Source of the DNA: an uncultured Methylococcaceae bacterium
GTDB taxonomy: Bacteria > Pseudomonadota > Gammaproteobacteria > Methylococcales > Methylomonadaceae
Assembly: GCA_903908165.1 (NCBI GenBank)
Contig: CAIVQX010000096.1
Span: 1-33,216, forward strand
Reading direction: 5' to 3'
Length of the DNA stretch: 33,216 bases
A program made the translations under genes and the position numbers. Under the pieces are notes generated by a model. That model was not told the origin of the DNA, did not search any database, and was given only the letters and a program-made list of their open reading frames with translations. This document shows, in pieces, positions 3,043 through 13,169 of the stretch; the first letter of the stretch is position 1; each line of letters opens with the position of its first letter.

Positions 3043-4674
3043 ATGAATACAACAAATCCTGAAAAAACTGTTTCTCTCGGTAAAGAGCCACCTAAAATGC
3101 CGGGAGCATTGCCTATTTTGGGGCATATGCTCAGATTTGGAAAAAATCCCTTTCAGTATATGATGACACTTAGAAATACGCTGGGAGAAATTGGCGAATT
3201 TCGTATGTTTCATCAAAAAATGGTTTTAATGACAGGCCCTGAAGCGAATGAAGCCTTTTTTAGGGCGGCTGATGTTCAGTTGGATCAAAGTCAGGCTTAT
3301 AAAATAATGACGCCTATTTTTGGAAAGGGTGTGGTTTTTGATGCCCCGCCGCATAAAAAAGATCAGCAACTTAAAATGCTTATGCCTGTGTTGCGTGATA
3401 AGCCAATGCGAGGTTATGCTCAAGTTATAGTGAAAGAAGTTGAGCAAATGGTTGCTGATTGGGGCGATAGTGGTGAAATTGATATACTTGAGTTTATGAA
3501 AGAGCTCACGATATATACATCTAGTCATTGTCTACTGGGTGATGAATTTCGTTACGAGCTTAATGAAGAGTTCGCAAAGATTTATCATGATCTTGAGAAG
3601 GGTGTGAATCCTTTGGCTTTTGTTTTTCCTTACTTACCGCTGCCCGTGTTTCGCCGTCGTGATAGGGCTCGCGTGAGGCTGCAAGAGTTAGTGACAGGAA
3701 TTATTGCTAAAAGAGCGCAGAAAGCAGAGAAAAGTGAAGATGCGTTCCAATTGCTTATTGAGGCCAAATATGATGATGGTAGTCATTTGTCTGCTCATGA
3801 AATAACAGGCATGTTAATTGGCACTATATTTGCCGGACACCACACAACAGCGGGTACAGCAGCATGGACCTTGCTCGAGTTGGCAAGGCGTCCAGAGCAG
3901 TTGAATTTAGTGTTGAAGGAGTTGGATACGCATTTTGGCGTTGATGGAGAAGTGACTTTTCAATCGTTACGTGAAATTCCGGCATTGGAAAATACTATTA
4001 AAGAGGTGTTGCGTTTACACCCACCCTTGATATTTTTAATTCGTAAGGTGATGAAAGATTTTCACTTTAAAGGTTATACGATAAAAGCCGGTAAATATGT
4101 TTGTGCTTCGCCAAGAGTTTCTCACCGTATCGCTGAAGTTTTTCCTGATCCGGAAAAGTTTGATCCTGATCGTTATTCAGAAGCACGACAGGAAGATGCC
4201 AAGCCTTTTAGTTGGATAGCCTTTGGTGGTGGCAAACATAAATGCACGGGTAATGCCTTTGCCATGTTGCAATTAAAAGCTATTTTTAGCATTTTATTAC
4301 GTCGATACACCTTTGAACTGATAGATGATAAAGATAATTATCAGGATGATTTTACACAAATGGTGGTACAGCCAGTATCACCTTGCCGTGTTCGCTACAA
4401 AAAACGCATGGAAATTAAAGAAGCGGTTGCTGAGTTAGAGAAAGAGAGTGGGCAGGAAGTTGCTCAGCAAGTTTCCGGTCTACATATAAAAATAGATAGG
4501 GAGCTTTGCCAAGGGCACGCAACCTGTATGGCAGAGGCGCCTGAATTATTTAAGGTTGATGATGCGGGTAATGTAACGGTATTACAGGAAAATCCATCTC
4601 AGGATTTACTAACAAAAGCTCAACAGGCTGAAAAATATTGCCCAACAAAAGCAATTTCAATAGAACTCAAATAA
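3043..4674 (+). CDS. cyp51: CYP51 sterol 14-alpha-demethylase fused to a 3Fe-4S-type ferredoxin
   Basis: This 543-residue protein removes the 14-alpha methyl group of lanosterol-type sterols by three successive oxidations. The P450 part (about 1-455) shows the CYP51 B'-region signature MTPIFGKGVVFDAPPH, the I-helix oxygen-activation motif AGHHTT (residues 264-269), the K-helix ExxR (Glu321, Arg324) and the haem loop FGGGKHKCTG with proximal Cys401. A charged linker of about 30 residues follows. Residues about 478-543 form a small ferredoxin: Cys489 and Cys495 in CQGHATC, then APELF, and the third ligand Cys533 in CPTKAI. Three cluster cysteines suggest 3Fe-4S. The same fusion is known in Methylococcus capsulatus; it supplies the P450's electron donor in cis, with a separate reductase still needed. 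The ATG start fits the family N-terminus. It is the first gene of a four-gene sterol cluster. Confidence 0.95.
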   Translation: MNTTNPEKTVSLGKEPPKMPGALPILGHMLRFGKNPFQYMMTLRNTLGEIGEFRMFHQKMVLMTGPEANEAFFRAADVQLDQSQAYKIMTPIFGKGVVFDAPPHKKDQQLKMLMPVLRDKPMRGYAQVIVKEVEQMVADWGDSGEIDILEFMKELTIYTSSHCLLGDEFRYELNEEFAKIYHDLEKGVNPLAFVFPYLPLPVFRRRDRARVRLQELVTGIIAKRAQKAEKSEDAFQLLIEAKYDDGSHLSAHEITGMLIGTIFAGHHTTAGTAAWTLLELARRPEQLNLVLKELDTHFGVDGEVTFQSLREIPALENTIKEVLRLHPPLIFLIRKVMKDFHFKGYTIKAGKYVCASPRVSHRIAEVFPDPEKFDPDRYSEARQEDAKPFSWIAFGGGKHKCTGNAFAMLQLKAIFSILLRRYTFELIDDKDNYQDDFTQMVVQPVSPCRVRYKKRMEIKEAVAELEKESGQEVAQQVSGLHIKIDRELCQGHATCMAEAPELFKVDDAGNVTVLQENPSQDLLTKAQQAEKYCPTKAISIELK

Positions 4675-4693
4675 ACGATTAAAAGAGACAAAA

Positions 4694-5296
4694 ATGGCAG
4701 CATATCCCAGAGCAGAACTTGAAGAAATGGTGGAGCGTTGGTTGCAGGCGAATCGTGATGCTGAAAAGGCCGGTAACTGGCCAAAATATTTGGGGGCAAT
4801 GTACACTGATGATGCAGAATACCGCTGGAATATAGGCCCTAACGAAGAGTTTGTCGCACGAAGTCGAAAAGAAATAGAAGAATGGGCTTTAGGTGTTCAA
4901 ATGGAAGGTTTTGAAGAATGGCGTTATCCGTACCACAGGATTTTAATTGATGAAAAGCAGGGTGAGGTGATTGGTCTCTGGAATCAAGTATCGCCAGCTC
5001 TCCGAGAGGATGGTACGCATTACCAAGTAGAAGGGATTGGCGGATCTTGGTTCCGTTACGGCGGTAATTATAAGTGGGAATGGCAGAGGGATTTCTTTGA
5101 TTTAGGGAATGTCAAAGCCTTATTTTTCGAATTAGCTGCTGATGACAAGCTTGACCCAGCTGTAAAAATGAAAATAGGTAAACTGGCCAAAGGTCAGTTA
5201 TTGCCTGGTCATGAGCGTTTGCGAATTCAGCCTAGCCTATTAAAAAAGCTGAAAGGCTTTATTGCAATGGTTCGTATTGCATTGTTTAATAAGTAA
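4694..5296 (+). CDS. NTF2/SnoaL-like protein in the sterol cluster
   Basis: A 200-residue soluble protein with no signal peptide or membrane segment. The first 135 or so residues fit the cone-shaped NTF2-like fold: N-terminal helices (ELEEMVERWLQANRDAEKAG), then WPKYLGAMYTDDAEYRWNIGP, and later strands containing VIGLWNQVSP and GGSWFRYGG. The tail of about 65 residues is helical and basic, ending KKLKGFIAMVRIALFNK. The fold is used by ketosteroid isomerases, polyketide cyclases and many binding proteins, so chemistry cannot be read from it. It starts 19 bases after the CYP51 gene, behind an AGAGA ribosome site, and before the cyclase, so it is very likely co-transcribed. Sterol binding or a role in processing the CYP51 product is an inference. 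The basic amphipathic tail might touch membranes. Confidence 0.75.
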   Translation: MAAYPRAELEEMVERWLQANRDAEKAGNWPKYLGAMYTDDAEYRWNIGPNEEFVARSRKEIEEWALGVQMEGFEEWRYPYHRILIDEKQGEVIGLWNQVSPALREDGTHYQVEGIGGSWFRYGGNYKWEWQRDFFDLGNVKALFFELAADDKLDPAVKMKIGKLAKGQLLPGHERLRIQPSLLKKLKGFIAMVRIALFNK

Positions 5297-5364
5297 AGAA
5301 TTAAGTGCAATGGATGTCAATCTTTTGTTATAGCTCAGCTACGAAATAATACCCCATAAAAACT

Positions 5365-7608
5365 ATGTTGAATGTAAAAAAAAGCTGGAAACACTGGCAA
5401 CTTCTTACTGAAAAAGGAAGGCATATTTGGGCTTTTAAGTCCAAGTCAAACAATATAAGTCAACATCTCCAGCATGCTGAAGATATTTCGAATGAAGAAA
5501 TAAAACAGTTTGTTGAAGATTTTAAGTTTGATAAGTTTAGTAATCCCAATTCGGGTGATAAGGTTTTTAGGCATGCGGCAATAAATTCAAAGTTTCAGGC
5601 GTTTGCTGGCAAAATCCCGCAATCAGAAGATCCGGAGCATCAGAAAGTAACGAATGCACTGATTAATGGGATGAATTACTTCACCTATTTGCAAAGTGAT
5701 GAAGGCCATTGGCCGGGAGACTATGGTGGTCCTCTATTTCTTTTGCCCGGTTTACTGATTGCTTCGTATATTTCCGGGACACCCTTTCCTAAGGCTCATC
5801 AAGAAATGATGAAAATTTACTTGTTCAATCATCAGAATAAAGATGCTGGTTGGGGGATGCATATTGAAGGCGAATCAACAATGTTTGGTACGGTTATGCA
5901 ATATGTCTCATTGCGTATTTTGGGGGTTGACAAGAATGACGAGCGGTTGATAAAAGCTAGGGCATGGATTAGTGATCATGGTGGAGCTGTTGGTATTCCA
6001 TCATGGGGGAAATTTTACCTTTCAATTTTGAATCTATATGCGTGGGAAGGTTTTAATAGTCTTTTTCCTGAGATGTGGTTGTTTCCCAAATGGTTGCCGT
6101 TTCATCCTTGGCGTTATTGGTGTCACAGTCGAATGGTGTATTTGCCAATGGCCTATTGTTACGCAGAGCGAATCAAAATACCTGAAAATGAATTGATTTT
6201 GTCATTAAGAGAAGAAATTTATATCGAAGCTTTTGATGCGATTAATTGGTCGAAGCAACGTAATACAGTTTGTGAAAAAGATGCTTACACTATTCCATCT
6301 CCTGTTTTAAAGTGGATGAATTTTTTCACTAATACCTACGAGAAGATGCAATGCCCTTGGATAAGAAAGAGGGCTCTAGCTTATATCCTAAAATACCTAA
6401 ATGCTGAAGATGCACAAACTGACTATATCAATATAGGTCCAGTCAATAAAGCGATTAACTCTATTTGCATTTGGCATGCTTATGGTAAAGATTCAGTGCA
6501 ATTTAAAAAACATGTGGCACGTTGGTATGATTACTTGTGGGTTGCTGAGGACGGCATGAAAATGAGTGGTTATAATGGCTCTCAGTTATGGGATACTGCT
6601 TTCGCAACACGGGCTATGTTAGAAAGTGATTTGGGCAAATTATTTGCAGGAACTATTGCCAAAAGTTATCAGTTTATTGACCATTCACAAATTGCAGTTG
6701 AACATTCAACTCACGCTGAATTCTTTCGTCATCCTATGATTGGTAGTTGGCCTTTTTCAACAGCTGAAAACGGCTGGCCGGTTGCCGATTGCACAGCAGA
6801 AGGGTTAAGTGCTACTTTAGCTGTTCATCATTCCAGACTTATTGTGCCGTTAATTGATGAAGCAAGGATAAAACAGGCTATTGATGTTATACTGTCCTAT
6901 CAAAATTCTGATGGTGGTTGGGCGACATACGAATTAAGTCGAGCGCCTAAATGGTTGGAAAAGCTTAATCCCTCAGAAGTCTTTGCCGATATAATGATTG
7001 ATTATTCCTGGACGGAATGCACTGCAGCTTGTGTTATTTCTTTATTGGAAGCCCGAGAAGCTTACCCGGATTACAAAAATAGCGAAATACATAGGGCAAT
7101 TGGTGCAGGACTTAGGTTTATCCTAGAACAACAAAAGGGAGACGGTTCTTGGTATGGCGGCTGGGCAGTTTGTTTTACTTATGCTACGTGGTTTGGCGTA
7201 GAAGCGATTAGTAAGGCTATGGGTAAGGGTTTTTATAATGATACGGTTTTAGCAGGTAGCTTGAAAAAAGCTTGCGAATTTCTGGTAGGAAAACAGAAAG
7301 TTGATGGTGGCTGGGGTGAGACTTTTGAATCGTGTTCCAAGTTAGTTTATACTGAGGCTAAAAAGTCGCAAGTAGTTAATACGGCATGGGCATTGCTAGG
7401 ATTAATGGCAGCTGATTTTAATGATAAAATCTTAATTGAAAAAGGTGTTAATCAATTGTTAAGTAGACAGGCTGATATTGGTGATTGGTCGCAGGAAAGT
7501 ATTTCTGGCGTGTTTAACTATAACTGCATGATAACCTATTCAAATTATAGGAATATATTTCCTATTTGGGCGTTAAGTCGATATTACAGGCGGTATGTGC
7601 AGGAATGA
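5365..7608 (+). CDS. oxidosqualene cyclase, predicted lanosterol synthase
   Basis: A 747-residue triterpene cyclase that folds (3S)-2,3-oxidosqualene into a tetracyclic sterol, acting as a monotopic membrane enzyme. The acid motif is DCTAE (Asp475-Glu479), the form typical of oxidosqualene cyclases; squalene-hopene cyclases have DxDD. Several QW-type repeats are visible (near DEGHWPGDYGG, QNSDGGWATYE, QQKGDGSWYGG, QKVDGGWGE). At the positions that distinguish plant cycloartenol synthase from lanosterol synthase it has Tyr403 (GMKMSGYNGSQ), Asn469 and Val473 (NGWPVADC). By family knowledge Asn plus Val favours lanosterol even with Tyr present. Length is normal for the family. It lies 68 bases after the NTF2-like gene and 44 before squalene monooxygenase, giving substrate supply and product use in one cluster. 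The ribosome site is weak. Confidence 0.94.
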   Translation: MLNVKKSWKHWQLLTEKGRHIWAFKSKSNNISQHLQHAEDISNEEIKQFVEDFKFDKFSNPNSGDKVFRHAAINSKFQAFAGKIPQSEDPEHQKVTNALINGMNYFTYLQSDEGHWPGDYGGPLFLLPGLLIASYISGTPFPKAHQEMMKIYLFNHQNKDAGWGMHIEGESTMFGTVMQYVSLRILGVDKNDERLIKARAWISDHGGAVGIPSWGKFYLSILNLYAWEGFNSLFPEMWLFPKWLPFHPWRYWCHSRMVYLPMAYCYAERIKIPENELILSLREEIYIEAFDAINWSKQRNTVCEKDAYTIPSPVLKWMNFFTNTYEKMQCPWIRKRALAYILKYLNAEDAQTDYINIGPVNKAINSICIWHAYGKDSVQFKKHVARWYDYLWVAEDGMKMSGYNGSQLWDTAFATRAMLESDLGKLFAGTIAKSYQFIDHSQIAVEHSTHAEFFRHPMIGSWPFSTAENGWPVADCTAEGLSATLAVHHSRLIVPLIDEARIKQAIDVILSYQNSDGGWATYELSRAPKWLEKLNPSEVFADIMIDYSWTECTAACVISLLEAREAYPDYKNSEIHRAIGAGLRFILEQQKGDGSWYGGWAVCFTYATWFGVEAISKAMGKGFYNDTVLAGSLKKACEFLVGKQKVDGGWGETFESCSKLVYTEAKKSQVVNTAWALLGLMAADFNDKILIEKGVNQLLSRQADIGDWSQESISGVFNYNCMITYSNYRNIFPIWALSRYYRRYVQE

Positions 7609-7652
7609 TAGAATACAACTTTGTTTCAAGTGCTAGTGTAATCTAACATAAT

Positions 7653-8999
7653 ATGAAATCAGAATTCGACATTTGCATTATTGGTGCGGGTATGGCGGGA
7701 GCAACTATTGCAGCCTATCTTGCTCCAAAAGGCATTAGAGTTGCATTGATTGACCATTGCTTTAAAGAAAAGAAACGTATTGTTGGCGAACTTTTGCAGC
7801 CAGGTGCTGTCCTTTCACTTGAACAAATGGCTCTTGGGCATTTGTTGGAGGGTTTTGATGCGCAGCCTGTCGATGGTTATTCATTGTTACAAGGCGATAA
7901 AAAAATAACTATTCCTTACCCGCTACATTATAAGGGTATGGGGTTACATAATGGTCGTTTTTTACAGAAAATAAGAGCGTCAGCGCTTCAAAATGAGTCT
8001 GTTGAGCAAATACACGGCAAGGCCTTAGAGTTATTAGAAAATGAACGTCATGAGATTATTGGTGTGAGTTACCGAGAGTCACTGACATCCGAAATAAAAT
8101 CTATTTATGCGCCATTAACAATTACAAGTGACGGGTTCTTTTCAAATTTTAGAGAAAGTCTCAGTAATAATGAAAAAACAGTCACTTCTTATTTTATTGG
8201 TTTAATTCTAAAAGATTGTGATATGCCTTTCCCCAGGCATGGTCATGTATTCCTATCGGGTCCGACTCCTTTTATTTGTTATCCCATTTCAACAAATGAA
8301 GTTAGACTTTTAATTGATTTCCCTGGAGATCAATTACCCAGAAAATTCTTGTTACAGGAGCATTTGGATGCCAATGTGACGCCATATATACCCGAGTGCA
8401 TGCTTGCAAGTTACCAATATGCCATAGAAGAAGGTGGCTTTAAGGTTATGCCTAATCATTATATGGCGGCAAAACCAATATTCCGGAAAGGTGCTGTGAT
8501 GTTAGGTGATGCCTTGAATATGCGACATCCCCTAACAGGCGGGGGGTTGACTGCAGTATTTTCGGATATACAAATATTGAGTGGTCATTTATTGGCAATG
8601 CCTGATTTTAAAAATACCGATCTAATTCATCAAAAAATTGAAGCTTATTACCGCGATAGGCAGCATGCCAATGCAAATCTTAATGTTCTTGCGAATGCGC
8701 TTTACGGGGTTATGTCAAATGAGTTGCTTAAAACAGCGGTTTTTAAGTATTTGCAGTGTGGTGGCGTAAACGCGCAGGAATCAATTGCGATCTTGGCTGG
8801 ATTAAATAGAAACCATTATTCTTTAATAAAACAATTTTTTTGTTTAGCTATGTTTGGCGCTTATGACTTGGTGCGTGAAAGCTTAACAAATATCCCCAAA
8901 GCAACAAAAATATTGTTGGATGCACTTATTATTATCAAGCCATTAGCTAAAAATGAACTTTCAGTAGCCGAAGTTGTTAGTGGTTATTTTAAGAAATAA
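7653..8999 (+). CDS. squalene monooxygenase (squalene epoxidase)
   Basis: A 448-residue FAD-dependent monooxygenase that epoxidises squalene to 2,3-oxidosqualene using O2, the first oxygen-dependent step of sterol synthesis. The N-terminus has the dinucleotide-binding GxGxxG motif (Gly11-Ala-Gly-Met-Ala-Gly16), followed by VGELLQPGA, characteristic of squalene epoxidases. The second FAD motif reads GDALNMRHPLTGGG, with Asp286, which is close to diagnostic for this enzyme within the flavoprotein superfamily. The N-terminal membrane anchor of eukaryotic homologues is absent, as in other bacterial members. The hydrophobic C-terminal third (FCLAMFGAYDLV and following) may give membrane association. 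It follows the cyclase by 44 bases and is the last gene of the sterol cluster. It needs a reductase partner that is not encoded here. Confidence 0.94.
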   Translation: MKSEFDICIIGAGMAGATIAAYLAPKGIRVALIDHCFKEKKRIVGELLQPGAVLSLEQMALGHLLEGFDAQPVDGYSLLQGDKKITIPYPLHYKGMGLHNGRFLQKIRASALQNESVEQIHGKALELLENERHEIIGVSYRESLTSEIKSIYAPLTITSDGFFSNFRESLSNNEKTVTSYFIGLILKDCDMPFPRHGHVFLSGPTPFICYPISTNEVRLLIDFPGDQLPRKFLLQEHLDANVTPYIPECMLASYQYAIEEGGFKVMPNHYMAAKPIFRKGAVMLGDALNMRHPLTGGGLTAVFSDIQILSGHLLAMPDFKNTDLIHQKIEAYYRDRQHANANLNVLANALYGVMSNELLKTAVFKYLQCGGVNAQESIAILAGLNRNHYSLIKQFFCLAMFGAYDLVRESLTNIPKATKILLDALIIIKPLAKNELSVAEVVSGYFKK

Positions 9000-9519
9000 G
9001 CCTCAACAAAATTTAATATTTTGGTTTTGACTCAAATTTAAAACTTTCTTATTGGCAATATTCAACGTAATTTCTCTGCCACATTTCCATTTTCATTCTT
9101 GGTATTCTAAGCAATTTGATGTTGCCTTGTTCTCTTGCATAAATAGGCAAAGCAGATATCTGTTTATAACTGTCTAAGTGGATAAAAACAAAAGATTTCC
9201 TTTTGTAATATGTTAAAATCAGGCCGTATTGGAGGCCAAGATTGCAACTCATACGATCTAAATGTTTTTCTGTAACAGAATGAAACACTTTAAGGGTTAT
9301 TGTGATTTTCTAAGTGGTCTCCTTAAATTAGGAAGGGTGATTATATAACTTAAATATGCGATTGGCTTTTAGCCGATTTTTCTGTACATTACTTTAAATT
9401 AGTTTGCTAACGTTTAAGGGAATATGTGCTTGGGGTGGAATAAGAAGATCACATTAATTATTTGAATTATCACATACCGGTTCCATGTCTTTTATCTAAA
9501 TTCGTATCTTAAAATATCT
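9000..9519. other. 520-base intergenic region between sterol cluster and PPi-phosphofructokinase
   Basis: No convincing plus-strand gene is present. A minus-strand open frame of 79 codons with a GTG start (9049-9288) has no recognisable motif and no clear ribosome site, and is not called. A terminator-like hairpin lies at 9361-9381 (listed separately). The remaining 140 bases before the ATG at 9520 presumably hold the promoter of the phosphofructokinase gene; I could not pick out a convincing -35/-10 pair. Confidence 0.4.
9361..9381 (+). terminator. putative intrinsic terminator or leader hairpin upstream of pfp
   Basis: The arms ATTGGCT (9361-9367) and AGCCGAT (9371-9377) pair over seven positions, one of them a G-U wobble, around a TTT loop, and are followed directly by a run of T residues. 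This is the shape of a Rho-independent terminator on the plus strand. It is 360 bases after the end of the squalene monooxygenase gene and about 140 before the next start, so it might end the sterol transcript or act in a leader of the next gene. Confidence 0.45.
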
Positions 9520-10749
9520 ATGAACAAACCAAAAAAAGTTGCAATTCTAACCGCGGGCGGTTTGGCGCCATGTTTGAACTCGGCTATTGGCAGCCTAATT
9601 GAACGTTATACAGAAATTGATCCTTCTATAGAAATTATTTGTTACCGAAGTGGTTACAAAGGACTTTTGTTGGGAGATTTTTATACGGTAACTCCAGAAA
9701 TTCGTGAAAAAGCAGGTCTTCTTCATCGTTTTGGGGGTTCTTTGATTGGTAATAGCAGAGTTAAACTAACGAATGTTAAAGATTGTGTTAAGCGTGGGCT
9801 GGTTCAAGAAGGTCAAGATCCACAAAAAGTAGCTGCAGATCAATTGGTTAATGATGGAGTGGATATTCTTCATACGATAGGTGGTGATGATACAAATACC
9901 GCTGCTGCTGATCTTGCTGCATTTCTTGCAAGTAATAATTATGGGCTGACAGTTATAGGGTTGCCGAAAACAGTCGATAATGACGTATTTCCTATTAAAC
10001 AATCATTGGGTGCATGGACTGCCGCAGAGCAAGGCGCACGTTACTTTTGGAATGTAGTAGCTGAAAACAATGCTAATCCGCGTATGTTGATTGTCCATGA
10101 AGTAATGGGACGCAGTTGTGGATGGCTGACTGCTGCAACTGCTCAGGAGTACCGAAAGTTACTTGATCGCGCAGAGTGGTTGCCTGAGCTAGGACTTGAT
10201 CGCAATGCTTTTGAGGTTCATGGGGTATTTATTCCGGAAATGACTATTGATATCGCTGCTGAAGCTAAACGTCTTCGTGCAGTAATGGATAAATATGACT
10301 GTGTTAATATTTTTGTTTCAGAGGGTGCTGGGGTAGAGTCCATTGTCGCTGAAATGCAAGCTAAAGGACAAGAAGTCCCACGTGATGCTTTTGGTCATGT
10401 AAAGCTCGATGCAGTTAATCCCGGCAAATGGTTTGGTGAGCAGTTTGCAGAAATGTTGGGTGCAGAAAAAACCTTAATTCAAAAATCGGGTTATTTTGCT
10501 AGAGCTGCAGCTTCAAATGTTGAAGATATACGTTTGATAAAGTCTTGTGCTGATTTAGCAGTTGAATGTGCATTTCGACGTGAGTCAGGTGTGATTGGAC
10601 ATGATGAGGATCGTGGTGGTATTTTGAGGGCTATAGAGTTTCCGCGAATCAAGGGCGGAAAACCGTTTGATCTTGATACTTCTTGGTTCAATGAAACTCT
10701 TGAGGAGATTGGTCAAGCAAAGGGTGATAAAGTTGAAGTGGCTCATTAA
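9520..10749 (+). CDS. pfp: pyrophosphate-dependent 6-phosphofructokinase
   Basis: A 409-residue glycolytic enzyme that phosphorylates fructose 6-phosphate with pyrophosphate in a reversible reaction. Two signatures separate it from ATP-dependent enzymes: GGDDTN, with Asp123-Asp124 where ATP enzymes have a Gly as second residue, and PKTVDND (Pro149-Asp155), with Lys150 replacing the Gly of PGTIDND. The substrate-binding MGRSCGWLT segment is also present. PPi-dependent enzymes are characteristic of aerobic methanotrophs, where the enzyme can also act on sedoheptulose phosphates of the ribulose monophosphate cycle; that activity here is inferred from relatives. It is followed after 74 bases by a dynamin-like GTPase on the same strand, probably co-transcribed. 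No clear ribosome site precedes the ATG, but the N-terminus KKVAILTAGGLAPC matches the family start. Confidence 0.95.
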   Translation: MNKPKKVAILTAGGLAPCLNSAIGSLIERYTEIDPSIEIICYRSGYKGLLLGDFYTVTPEIREKAGLLHRFGGSLIGNSRVKLTNVKDCVKRGLVQEGQDPQKVAADQLVNDGVDILHTIGGDDTNTAAADLAAFLASNNYGLTVIGLPKTVDNDVFPIKQSLGAWTAAEQGARYFWNVVAENNANPRMLIVHEVMGRSCGWLTAATAQEYRKLLDRAEWLPELGLDRNAFEVHGVFIPEMTIDIAAEAKRLRAVMDKYDCVNIFVSEGAGVESIVAEMQAKGQEVPRDAFGHVKLDAVNPGKWFGEQFAEMLGAEKTLIQKSGYFARAAASNVEDIRLIKSCADLAVECAFRRESGVIGHDEDRGGILRAIEFPRIKGGKPFDLDTSWFNETLEEIGQAKGDKVEVAH

Positions 10750-10823
10750 TTAATTTTTTACGGGTAAGCTTTTGTAATGTTTGCCCTCAATATCTTGAAT
10801 GTACTTAATAACCTTGGAAATTT

Positions 10824-13169
10824 ATGGCTACATGGCTTGAAACTTGTCAACAACAACTTGCTAGATTAGAAATAACTTCTGTCTTAGCGGATAGACTTGT
10901 TACGTTGTGTAATAAAACCGGCGTAGATCTTTCACCTGAGCTAGTGCATAAACTAACGATTGAGCACGGGCGATTAAATTTGCAATTGGAGCGTTTACAA
11001 GCCAACCGTTTTGAAGTTGCCGTGATTGGATTGGAAAAAGCGGGTAAAAGTGCTTTGCTAAATGCATGGTTAGGGCAAGAAATTTTGCCCTCTGCACGAG
11101 AAAGATGTACTTTCACGAGTACAGAAATTTGGTCTGCTCAGACTGAACAAGACCAACTTCTTTTTATTCAATATTACACCAAGGAAGAGATTGGTAAGCT
11201 TCAGCAGCAAAGAAAAGATGCGCTAAACGGTACATTGAATGATAAAGAAAGGAAAGAAATACAGGAAGATTTTGATGATACCGAGAAAAATCTTAATGCT
11301 ATCTACGAATTTACCAAGCAAAAAAATGGTTATACGCAAAGTTTTCTCGATATTAGTGAAGTTAATGACCAATTACAGTCGGCGATATTTAAAAATCGTG
11401 CGCAGTCTTTAGCTATTAAGCGTATTCAGCTTAAAACAGTCCGTTTAAGAAGCGATCGTGACATAGTTTTTCATGACGTTCCAGGCTTTAATTCTGGCGT
11501 TCAAATGCATTCAGAGCAGGCGATTTCTCGGCTTAAAGGTTGTGATGCCATTATTTATGCTAAAGAGATGAAGCAACCATCGATTACTGGCCCAGAAAAA
11601 GAGATTTTACTCATTGCTGATTCTGAAGATCCCAGTATTAGAGTGTCCGATAAAATTTTTGTTGTGCTTACACAAGCAGATGCTTTAGATGATCAGATTG
11701 ATTATAAAGAAACTTTGGCAAAACACAGGAATAATTGGCCTGATGTTCCTGAACGACGCATGATGCCAGTATGTGCTCGTGCTCATTTGGTTGAATTTGG
11801 AATTCCATCAGAGGATACCATGAGACGCACTAAAAGTGCTGATGACAAATTGAAGTTAAAGAAATTAGGTATAACAGATGGCATGGTTAACCTAAAAGGA
11901 ATGGTAAACGATTATATCGACCATGAGCGGGTAGAAGTTCTTCAAAGACGTTGTGATGCACTGGTTAATAACATAAGGCAATATGCCGCTGATATATTGG
12001 GTAAGCTTGAACCAGTCTATGAGGCAATAGCAACCGGTGATATAGAAGAAGATGACCTCTTGGGAAAAGAGTTTAATCAATGGTGGGGCCGTGAATGGCA
12101 ACGTATCAAAAAAGATTTTGATATGTGGTATGCAGAAAGTATTCAAGGTCGTAAGGAAGCCGATGCTATTAGTGCAGAACATCAAGAGTTAGCAACTTTA
12201 CATACGGCTTATGATGAAAAAATCGAGGCCTTACTTTCCAATCTTACGACGGGTCAAACTGAAGAGTTAAAGCGGATTTATACCGCAGGAAGAACTATCT
12301 CTATGCCTGATCCACGTGAAGGAAATTATAAAATACGTGAGGAGTTGTTTAGAGAAATTCAGCAAAAATTTGAAACTGAATTAACTGATCAATTGGCGCA
12401 ATCATTACAGGTATTAATTGATCAAATTGTTCAAAAAACACAGTCATTGCTTTGGGAAACTGAAGATGTCCGTAAAAATCTACTTAATACCGATGAAAAT
12501 ATCGAACAGGCTCGAATTCGACATGGTTTTCAGGTTCTTTTTTTACGTTTCGGCCGTGTTGCTGTAGAAGCTTTCATCGCTAAGCCTTTGCAGGCCCGCG
12601 AACGTTTACTCGATGAGCGATCAGCTGAGATTAAAACGTTGGAAGCCTTTTATCAAGGAACAGATATCAATAAGCAGGATGTTACCCATTACTTACGTCA
12701 CGGACTATGGGCAAATAACGTGCCTGCCCCATCTGTAATTGGCAGAACGGTTAAAACAGCCATTAAAGCAGCCATGAGTCCCGATGCTCAAAATTTATCA
12801 GCTGCAGAGCAGGCTAAGAAAACAGCGGATGACCAAGACAGATTATTAGAACCTACTAATTTTGAACAGGTCGTTCAAGAAATTAATGGTGATCTAGGTG
12901 CCTTGAAAGATTATCTGAAAAATAGTGTGTTTTATGCGGCTGGCTTTGTTACTTATTGTAACCAAGAGTTAGAGCGAATTCGTAATCGTTTTAAAGAAAT
13001 GGAAGACAACGAAAGACAATGGATAGGTTTGATTCGCACAGCTGTTAAGTATGAAAGAAACTCCAAAATTCCTTATAACATCGCACATTCAAGACGAGAT
13101 TTTCGTATGCGTCGAGAAATAGCTTTGGAGCTTAAAGAGGTTAGAGAAAGTTATACACAAGTTTATTGA
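10824..13169 (+). CDS. dynamin-like large GTPase
   Basis: A 781-residue GTPase of the bacterial dynamin-like group, whose known members bind, remodel or protect membranes. The P-loop is GLEKAGKS (residues 69-76). The switch-I threonine is probably in CTFTSTE just after it. The G3 motif is DVPG (Asp218-Gly221) and the G4-like motif TQAD (Thr283-Asp286), where N/TKxD is usual. About 100 charged, coiled-coil-prone residues separate the P-loop region from G3, and the C-terminal half is largely helical with many Glu/Lys/Gln, as expected for a dynamin stalk. I see no strong transmembrane helix; moderately hydrophobic patches (QVLFLRFGRVAVEAFI and SVFYAAGFVTYC) could contact membrane. Bacterial dynamins often occur in pairs, but here only one is present, behind PPi-phosphofructokinase. 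The role is unknown. Confidence 0.85.
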   Translation: MATWLETCQQQLARLEITSVLADRLVTLCNKTGVDLSPELVHKLTIEHGRLNLQLERLQANRFEVAVIGLEKAGKSALLNAWLGQEILPSARERCTFTSTEIWSAQTEQDQLLFIQYYTKEEIGKLQQQRKDALNGTLNDKERKEIQEDFDDTEKNLNAIYEFTKQKNGYTQSFLDISEVNDQLQSAIFKNRAQSLAIKRIQLKTVRLRSDRDIVFHDVPGFNSGVQMHSEQAISRLKGCDAIIYAKEMKQPSITGPEKEILLIADSEDPSIRVSDKIFVVLTQADALDDQIDYKETLAKHRNNWPDVPERRMMPVCARAHLVEFGIPSEDTMRRTKSADDKLKLKKLGITDGMVNLKGMVNDYIDHERVEVLQRRCDALVNNIRQYAADILGKLEPVYEAIATGDIEEDDLLGKEFNQWWGREWQRIKKDFDMWYAESIQGRKEADAISAEHQELATLHTAYDEKIEALLSNLTTGQTEELKRIYTAGRTISMPDPREGNYKIREELFREIQQKFETELTDQLAQSLQVLIDQIVQKTQSLLWETEDVRKNLLNTDENIEQARIRHGFQVLFLRFGRVAVEAFIAKPLQARERLLDERSAEIKTLEAFYQGTDINKQDVTHYLRHGLWANNVPAPSVIGRTVKTAIKAAMSPDAQNLSAAEQAKKTADDQDRLLEPTNFEQVVQEINGDLGALKDYLKNSVFYAAGFVTYCNQELERIRNRFKEMEDNERQWIGLIRTAVKYERNSKIPYNIAHSRRDFRMRREIALELKEVRESYTQVY

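What the first reader, a model, noticed from the sequence alone, without database searches (positions are those of the whole stretch)
3043..8999. Compact four-gene bacterial sterol cluster from squalene to 14-demethylated sterol
The sequence shows CYP51-ferredoxin, an NTF2-like protein, oxidosqualene cyclase and squalene monooxygenase on one strand with gaps of 19, 68 and 44 bases. Sterol synthesis is rare in bacteria. As I recall, the cyclase and epoxidase genes are paired in Methylococcus capsulatus while CYP51 lies elsewhere, so having all steps plus an accessory gene in one likely operon is a useful case for how the pathway is organised or transferred.
Basis: partly seen in the sequence, partly recalled or inferred. 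Interest (0 to 1): 0.72.

Follow-up and report, generated by a model that had tools for sequence, protein, structure and literature searches.

The report
Methanotroph four-gene sterol synthesis cluster
Four neighbouring genes in a methane-eating bacterium should turn squalene into an unusual bacterial sterol; the set is real, but its members and much of its order are already described, so its remaining interest is how two of the four enzymes came to differ in origin between bacterial families.

Summary
[quoted passage not shown] The "accessory" gene matches the 8,14-sterol reductase 8,14-Bsr (Lee et al., J Bacteriol 2026); all six published pocket residues are kept. Predicted route: squalene, oxidosqualene, lanosterol, 4,4-dimethylcholesta-8,14,24-trienol, 4,4-dimethylcholesta-8(14),24-dienol. 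The same order occurs in 18 of 25 Bsr-bearing genomes of the window's family, and published Methylobacter luteus locus tags already imply it: an ordinary new member. Beyond the finding: between two methanotroph families CYP51 and Bsr are about 61-65% identical, OSC and SMO only 35% and 24%, though within each family the four differ far less. This family's OSC groups with Bacteroidota-type cyclases and carries Y-[N/Q]-V where those carry Y-H-I. This suggests a swapped OSC-SMO pair beside an older CYP51-Bsr pair, and a cyclase turned from cycloartenol to lanosterol; the rooting is not settled, and the OSC split is known (Wei 2016).

The parts
3043..4674 (+). CYP51-ferredoxin fusion: sterol 14alpha-demethylase; lanosterol to 4,4-dimethylcholesta-8,14,24-trienol (activity inferred)
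   Evidence: P450 domain plus C-terminal ferredoxin domain (residues 482-540); best PDB match 6mcw 'Cytochrome P450 51' over residues 15-540, 741 bits; 59-64% identity between the families f1 and f4 in the pairs compared
4694..5296 (+). 8,14-Bsr, NTF2-superfamily bacterial 8,14-sterol reductase (activity inferred from homologs)
   Evidence: Y37, Y43, Y78, Y80, D133, D136, the positions mutated in PMC13277303, are identical in 10 of 10 aligned proteins, window included; follows CYP51 on the same strand in 25 of 25 Bsr-bearing genomes of the family, 24 with a gap of 9-29 bases and one of about 650
5365..7608 (+). Oxidosqualene cyclase, predicted lanosterol synthase (D475 of DCTAE; Y403, N469, V473 at the human T381/C449/V453 positions)
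7653..8999 (+). Squalene monooxygenase (squalene epoxidase) of the type shared with eukaryotes and Bacteroidota
   Evidence: PF08491 264 bits; 6c6n squalene monooxygenase 272 bits; tree
9360..9378 (+). Terminator-like hairpin after the last gene (weak)
   Evidence: Consensus scan; 4 sites found in the region against 5.3 expected, so not significant on its own

Best explanation
A sterol biosynthesis operon of a Methylobacter-like methanotroph (family coded f1 by the tool). SMO epoxidises squalene; OSC closes 2,3-oxidosqualene to lanosterol; CYP51, fed electrons by its own fused ferredoxin, removes the C-14 methyl and leaves 8,14-double bonds; 8,14-Bsr reduces and shifts these to one 8(14) double bond. 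With no SdmA or BstA and no convincing SdmB found in the genome, the product should stop at 4,4-dimethylcholesta-8(14),24-dienol or a side-chain-reduced form. Shown here: the genes, domains, residues, conserved order, and absence of detectable SdmA and BstA. Inferred: co-transcription, enzyme activities and the product. Inferred from comparison: OSC and SMO have another origin than the OSC and SMO of the second methanotroph family, while CYP51 and Bsr are shared.
For: Genes and domains. 8,14-Bsr residues all kept; function by heterologous expression in the paper (sections 6-8 read). V at human position 453 tracked lanosterol synthesis in the bacteria tested by Wei 2016 (passage). CYP51>Bsr>OSC>SMO> in 18 of 25 Bsr-bearing family genomes; short gaps (estimated from match ends): CYP51-Bsr 9-29 bases in 24 of 25, OSC-SMO 21-111 in 24 of 24. 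Methylobacter luteus holds the same four genes, followed by SdmB, SdmA and BstA homologs, and is listed as making a 4,4-dimethyl and a 4-methyl sterol (Wei table). Own genome (99.4% complete): one Rieske match, in a 205-aa frame with CTHLGC/CPCHGS letters that I read from recall as the bc1 subunit; no SdmA match; no BstA match; only a 20-bit generic match for SdmB.
Against: No transcription or lipid data. Wei's table names the methanotroph sterols as 8-enes, not 8(14)-enes, while PMC13277303(14) characteristic of them. Bsr-OSC gaps vary from 8 to 478 bases in 18 genomes, and two named relatives have inserts of about 1.8 and 2.2 kb inside the cluster (L073, L101), so one transcript is not certain. 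Promoter and terminator scans do not exceed shuffles. The OSC passes the NCBIfam squalene/oxidosqualene cyclase model TIGR01787 but stays under the cut-off of the bacterial 2,3-oxidosqualene cyclase model TIGR03463 (639 of 851 bits). The genome is a 210-contig assembly, so absence of SdmAB/Bst could be an assembly loss, though five other same-genus genomes of 97-100% completeness also lack SdmA (G084, G100, G110, G147, G149; a sixth, G127, has no Bsr or CYP51 match either). Position 381 is Tyr and 449 Asn, not the eukaryotic lanosterol-synthase T and C/Q, so minor cycloartenol or parkeol cannot be excluded.
Confidence: 0.9

Rival explanations
1. The 200-aa protein is not a reductase here but a sterol carrier, scaffold or NTF2-type isomerase that helps CYP51.
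For: No known cofactor-binding site, and hydride source unknown, as PMC13277303 itself says; follows CYP51 in 25 of 25 Bsr-bearing genomes of this family.
Against: 80-96% identity of the window protein to 11 aligned family homologs and 61-70% between the families (24 pairs); every mutated pocket residue kept; the M. capsulatus homolog was active when expressed, and those of M. tuberculosis and Sandaracinus too, at lower efficiency.
Confidence: 0.06
2. The OSC makes cycloartenol or a mixture, because it descends from a cycloartenol-synthase-like clade and keeps Tyr at position 381.
For: The OSCs nearest to the family among the 80 loci kept all carry Y-H-I (22 of 22 distinct sequences, two of them Methylothermaceae); grouped with the family at 97/94.
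Against: V at 453 in all 77 family-type sequences examined (44 YNV, 33 YQV; some genomes counted twice); V453 tracked lanosterol in the bacteria tested by Wei 2016; Methylobacter and Methylosarcina strains are listed with 4,4-dimethylcholesta- and 4-methylcholesta-type sterols and no cycloartenol.
Confidence: 0.07
3. OSC and SMO of the two methanotroph families are true orthologs that simply evolved faster after the split.
For: Same relative order CYP51, Bsr, OSC, SMO in both families (18 in f1; 12 in f4 with CYP51 flipped, 2 unflipped). An AU test does not reject joining the f1 and f4 OSCs (p 0.396).
Against: Within families the four genes diverge about alike (f4: CYP51 73, Bsr 72, OSC 69, SMO 64% mean), between families they do not (61, 65, 35, 24); f1 OSC groups with Bacteroidota-type sequences, and f1 SMO lies with these and human SMO across a 100/100 branch from f4; Wei 2016 puts methanotroph OSCs in both Group 1 and Group 2.
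Confidence: 0.15

Closest known systems
Sterol gene cluster of Methylobacter luteus / M. whittenburyi / Methylosarcina lacus (locus tags in Wei et al. 2016; example methanotroph clusters in Fig. 1b of Lee et al. 2026, legend only seen)
   Same: CYP51, Bsr, OSC, SMO in this order in M. luteus, read here as L135; spacing of the locus tags fits in the other two
   Different: M. luteus continues with SdmB, SdmA and BstA homologs after SMO; the window continues with phosphofructokinase and a dynamin-like gene, and its genome lacks recognisable SdmA and BstA
8,14-Bsr of Methylococcus capsulatus
   Same: All six pocket residues at the same numbers
   Different: In M. capsulatus it lies among genes not known to act on sterols
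Sterol genes of the second methanotroph family (f4; calling it Methylococcaceae-like is inference)
   Same: CYP51 59-64% and Bsr 61-70% identical; CYP51< Bsr> OSC> SMO> in 12 of 34 genomes
   Different: CYP51 mostly flipped or elsewhere; OSC 33-36% and SMO 22-28% identical only
Bacteroidota-type OSC and SMO pair (also in Methylothermaceae)
   Same: Nearest OSC (49-53%) and SMO (38-46%) outside the family among the loci kept
   Different: SMO, where found, divergent in nearly all; no CYP51 or Bsr within the fetched loci; Y-H-I (cycloartenol-type) residues

Membership tests
8,14-Bsr (bacterial 8,14-sterol reductase) | Pocket residues Y37, Y43, Y78, Y80, D133, D136 | tested here: met
   Invariant in 10 of 10 aligned proteins, window included
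8,14-Bsr (bacterial 8,14-sterol reductase) | Co-localised with a ferredoxin-fused or ferredoxin-linked CYP51 | tested here: met
   19-base gap to CYP51-Fd; 25 of 25 Bsr-bearing family genomes
8,14-Bsr (bacterial 8,14-sterol reductase) | NTF2-superfamily fold | not testable with these tools
   Structure prediction switched off; no Pfam hit
8,14-Bsr (bacterial 8,14-sterol reductase) | Converts the 8,14-diene to the 8(14)-ene | not testable with these tools
   Needs expression
CYP51 with fused ferredoxin (methanotroph type) | CYP51 P450 plus C-terminal ferredoxin domain | tested here: met
Lanosterol synthase | Catalytic Asp in DCTAE and Val at human position 453 | tested here: met
   D475, V473
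Lanosterol synthase | Thr at 381 and Cys/Gln at 449 (eukaryotic pattern) | tested here: not met
   Tyr and Asn in the window; Tyr and Asn/Gln in the family; Wei 2016 found position 453 alone to be predictive in bacteria
Bacterial 2,3-oxidosqualene cyclase model TIGR03463 | Score over the curated cut-off (851 bits) | tested here: not met
   638.5 bits; the wider model TIGR01787 is passed (672 of 322.7 bits)
Squalene monooxygenase | Squalene epoxidase domain PF08491 with FAD-binding part | tested here: met
   264 bits; PF01494 38 bits
C-4 demethylating methanotroph pathway (SdmAB/Bst) | SdmA, SdmB and BstA genes in the genome | tested here: not met
   No SdmA or BstA match, only a 20-bit generic SdmB match
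Single operon | One transcript over the four genes | not testable with these tools
   Short same-strand gaps only; promoter scan uninformative

The most novel reading that the evidence does not exclude
The cluster is a chimera assembled in place: an older bacterial CYP51-Bsr pair, shared by the methanotroph families, next to an OSC-SMO pair that in this family was taken from a Bacteroidota-type cycloartenol pathway, replacing or paralleling the unrelated pair that sits at the same place in the other family. On the way the cyclase changed from Y-H-I (cycloartenol) to Y-[N/Q]-V (lanosterol), the kind of change that laboratory work on plant cycloartenol synthase found to switch the product (recalled; the positions are cited by Wei 2016). 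The new lanosterol supply then matched the CYP51-Bsr pair already present.
Probability: 0.45. Interest if true: 0.55.

Novelty: new member of a known kind. Interest (0 to 1): 0.3.

Why it matters
Sterols are rare in bacteria and bear on how sterol synthesis arose and on how sterane fossils are read. The finding itself adds one more methanotroph to a described pathway. The comparison done on the way gives testable points: the two methanotroph families use very different OSC-SMO pairs with the same CYP51-Bsr pair and often the same order, and one clade may record a natural change from cycloartenol-type to lanosterol-type residues, which bears on a question that Wei et al. 2016 left open for their Group 2d. 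If Group 2d includes these Bacteroidota sequences (not checked against their tree), a bacterial source becomes as likely as the eukaryotic one they considered.

Tried and rejected
Rooting the OSC tree on the squalene-hopene cyclase of the genome: branch length 7.9, so the root was unreliable; rebuilt with the f4 cyclases as outgroup (44 rows chosen from the 118). AU tests do not decide the direction: holding all Y-H-I sequences as one clade p 0.248, holding f1 with f4 p 0.396; so the step from cycloartenol to lanosterol type is the shortest reading, not a proven one. Only two eukaryotic cyclases were in the tree, both on long branches. The SMO tree (36 rows) had an unsettled bootstrap, and human SMO falls, unresolved, on the same side as f1 and the Bacteroidota, so it does not by itself tell a bacterial from a eukaryotic source.

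Promoter and terminator scan: no more sites than in shuffles. Search for a canonical C-14 reductase (PF01222) in the own genome gave nothing, but nothing rang in the controls either, so it does not show absence. The PDB sequence hits of the 200-aa protein (7awz/7awy, about 45 residues, E 0.0001 and 0.0004) were set aside as chance by judgement. Paper searches that bear on the swapped pair or the residue change: (25 of 293 papers listed); none of the listed titles and abstract beginnings reports it, but I did not read most of these papers, the library lacks most subscription papers, and the trees of Hoshino and Gaucher 2021 and of Villanueva 2014 (recalled or cited) were not read. Wei 2016 (parts and passages) already reports two OSC lineages in Methylococcales.
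Full report
OBSERVATION. Pfam, NCBIfam and PDB searches identify a CYP51 with a C-terminal ferredoxin domain, an oxidosqualene cyclase and a squalene epoxidase; the 200-aa protein matches no Pfam or NCBIfam family. The cyclase passes TIGR01787 but not the stricter bacterial model TIGR03463. The window is contig 96 of a 2.78-Mb, 210-contig assembly, 99.4% complete. Genome G150, of the same genus by the tool's code, has a contig of exactly the length of the record 'Methylobacter sp. KS41' (2,423,795 bases), so I take the organism to be Methylobacter-like (inference).

THE ACCESSORY GENE. Lee, Giner and Welander (PMC13277303; abstract, sections 6, 7 and 8 and passages read) describe 8,14-Bsr, an NTF2-superfamily protein that co-localises with sterol genes in several methanotrophs and, when expressed with CYP51 in E. 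coli, converts 4,4-dimethylcholesta-8,14,24-trienol to the 8(14) sterol. The residues they mutated (Y37, Y43, Y78, Y80, D133, D136) are at the same positions in the window protein and in all 10 aligned proteins; the paper found D133, Y43 and the rings of Y37 and Y78 to matter and D136 and Y80 not.

HOW GENERAL THE ORDER IS. Four searches over 151 genomes of the order, the same set each time, were combined. Bsr was found in 59 of 151: 25 in family f1 (the window's), 33 in f4, 1 in f6. In f1, 18 of 25 have CYP51>Bsr>OSC>SMO> together; 6 have CYP51>Bsr> and OSC>SMO> apart (12 kb apart in G114); in one (G147) the contig ends 58 bases after the Bsr match. One of the 18 (G121) has CYP51 cut by the contig end. 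Of 34 f4 genomes in the table (33 with Bsr), 12 have CYP51< Bsr> OSC> SMO>, 2 have all four in one direction, and the other 20 are split in various ways or fragmentary. Among the named relatives, L073 and L101 carry inserts of about 1.8 and 2.2 kb within the cluster. Wei et al. 2016 (PMC4919349, parts and passages) list ERG11, Las and SE of Methylobacter luteus as MetluDRAFT_1253, 1255 and 1256; the skipped 1254 fits Bsr, and the M. luteus locus L135 read here has these four genes in this order. The order is therefore known in substance.

END PRODUCT. In M. luteus, SMO is followed by homologs that I call SdmB, SdmA and BstA (names by domain and position, following PMC10942540 and PMC10202945, passages). 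The window's genome gave no SdmA match, no BstA match (query the first 234 residues) and only a weak generic SdmB match; its one Rieske match lies in a 205-aa frame that looks like a cytochrome bc1 subunit (that label is recall). G084, G100, G110, G147 and G149 of the same genus also lack SdmA, while G121 and G150 have it. I expect 4,4-dimethyl 8(14) sterols and no 4-methyl sterols. Wei's table names the sterols of tested Methylobacter strains as 8-enes, so the double-bond place needs a proper lipid check.

TWO ORIGINS IN ONE CLUSTER. In 11 genomes chosen from those fetched, mean identity within f4 is 73 (CYP51), 72 (Bsr), 69 (OSC) and 64% (SMO); within f1 it is 76, 86, 71 and 68%. Between f1 and f4 it is 61, 65, 35 and 24%. 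Against the one f6 genome, f1 has 55, 58, 50 and 44%: there OSC and SMO are nearer than in f4 although CYP51 and Bsr are farther. CYP51 and Bsr thus behave as shared genes, OSC and SMO of f1 and f4 do not. A scan of named genomes (351 relatives, best 80 kept) shows that the nearest OSCs outside the family are from Bacteroidota, Chlorobiota, Verrucomicrobiota and Methylothermaceae. In 12 of the 20 such loci outside Methylococcales an SMO homolog lies in the fetched DNA (11 of the 12 upstream and divergent), and none of the 20 has a CYP51 or Bsr match there. In the OSC tree (44 rows) f1 and these sequences form a group at 97/94 apart from human lanosterol synthase, with f1 itself at 100/100. In the SMO tree f1 lies on the side of these sequences and of human SMO, across a 100/100 branch from f4; the order within that side is unresolved.

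RESIDUES. At the human positions 381/449/453 all 77 family-type sequences examined read Y-[N or Q]-V (44 and 33), all 24 relatives read Y-H-I (22 after removing two repeats), and 14 f4 sequences read A-H-V (some genomes occur twice through two collections). Wei 2016 gives T/C,Q/V as the lanosterol and Y/H/I as the cycloartenol pattern and finds position 453 to be predictive in bacteria. The shortest reading is a cycloartenol-type ancestor that became a lanosterol synthase in f1. The AU tests leave the rooting open.

VERDICT. The cluster is real and its function is well supported, but it is a new member of a described kind. The part with some reach is the comparison of origins, of which the OSC half was known.

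Noticed in passing
G051:C23:177462-178154, next to SMO at 178343-179686: A BstA-like transporter gene lies directly after SMO in a genome with no SdmA match and only weak SdmB matches; PMC10942540 (passage) describes Bst genes as found in the methanotrophs that hold sdmA/sdmB.
   Followed up: partly
G012:C29:123985-127977 (in L051): A 99%-complete Methylothermaceae genome has OSC (Y-H-I, cycloartenol-type) and SMO but no CYP51 or Bsr match; its relative G046 has all four.
   Followed up: partly
G029, G055, G067, G105 and other f4 genomes: SdmA of M. luteus is 78-82% identical to that of seven f4 genomes, more than CYP51 or Bsr between the families, while other f4 genomes and genus g4 hold a 40-45% type: two SdmA kinds, perhaps moved between families.
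   Followed up: no
window 9520-13169: Pyrophosphate-dependent phosphofructokinase and a dynamin-like GTPase follow the cluster; both also follow it in several same-genus relatives.
   Followed up: partly
G121:C11:22637-23206: A second, partial SdmA match with one in-frame TGA, about 10 kb from a full-length copy on the same contig.
   Followed up: no
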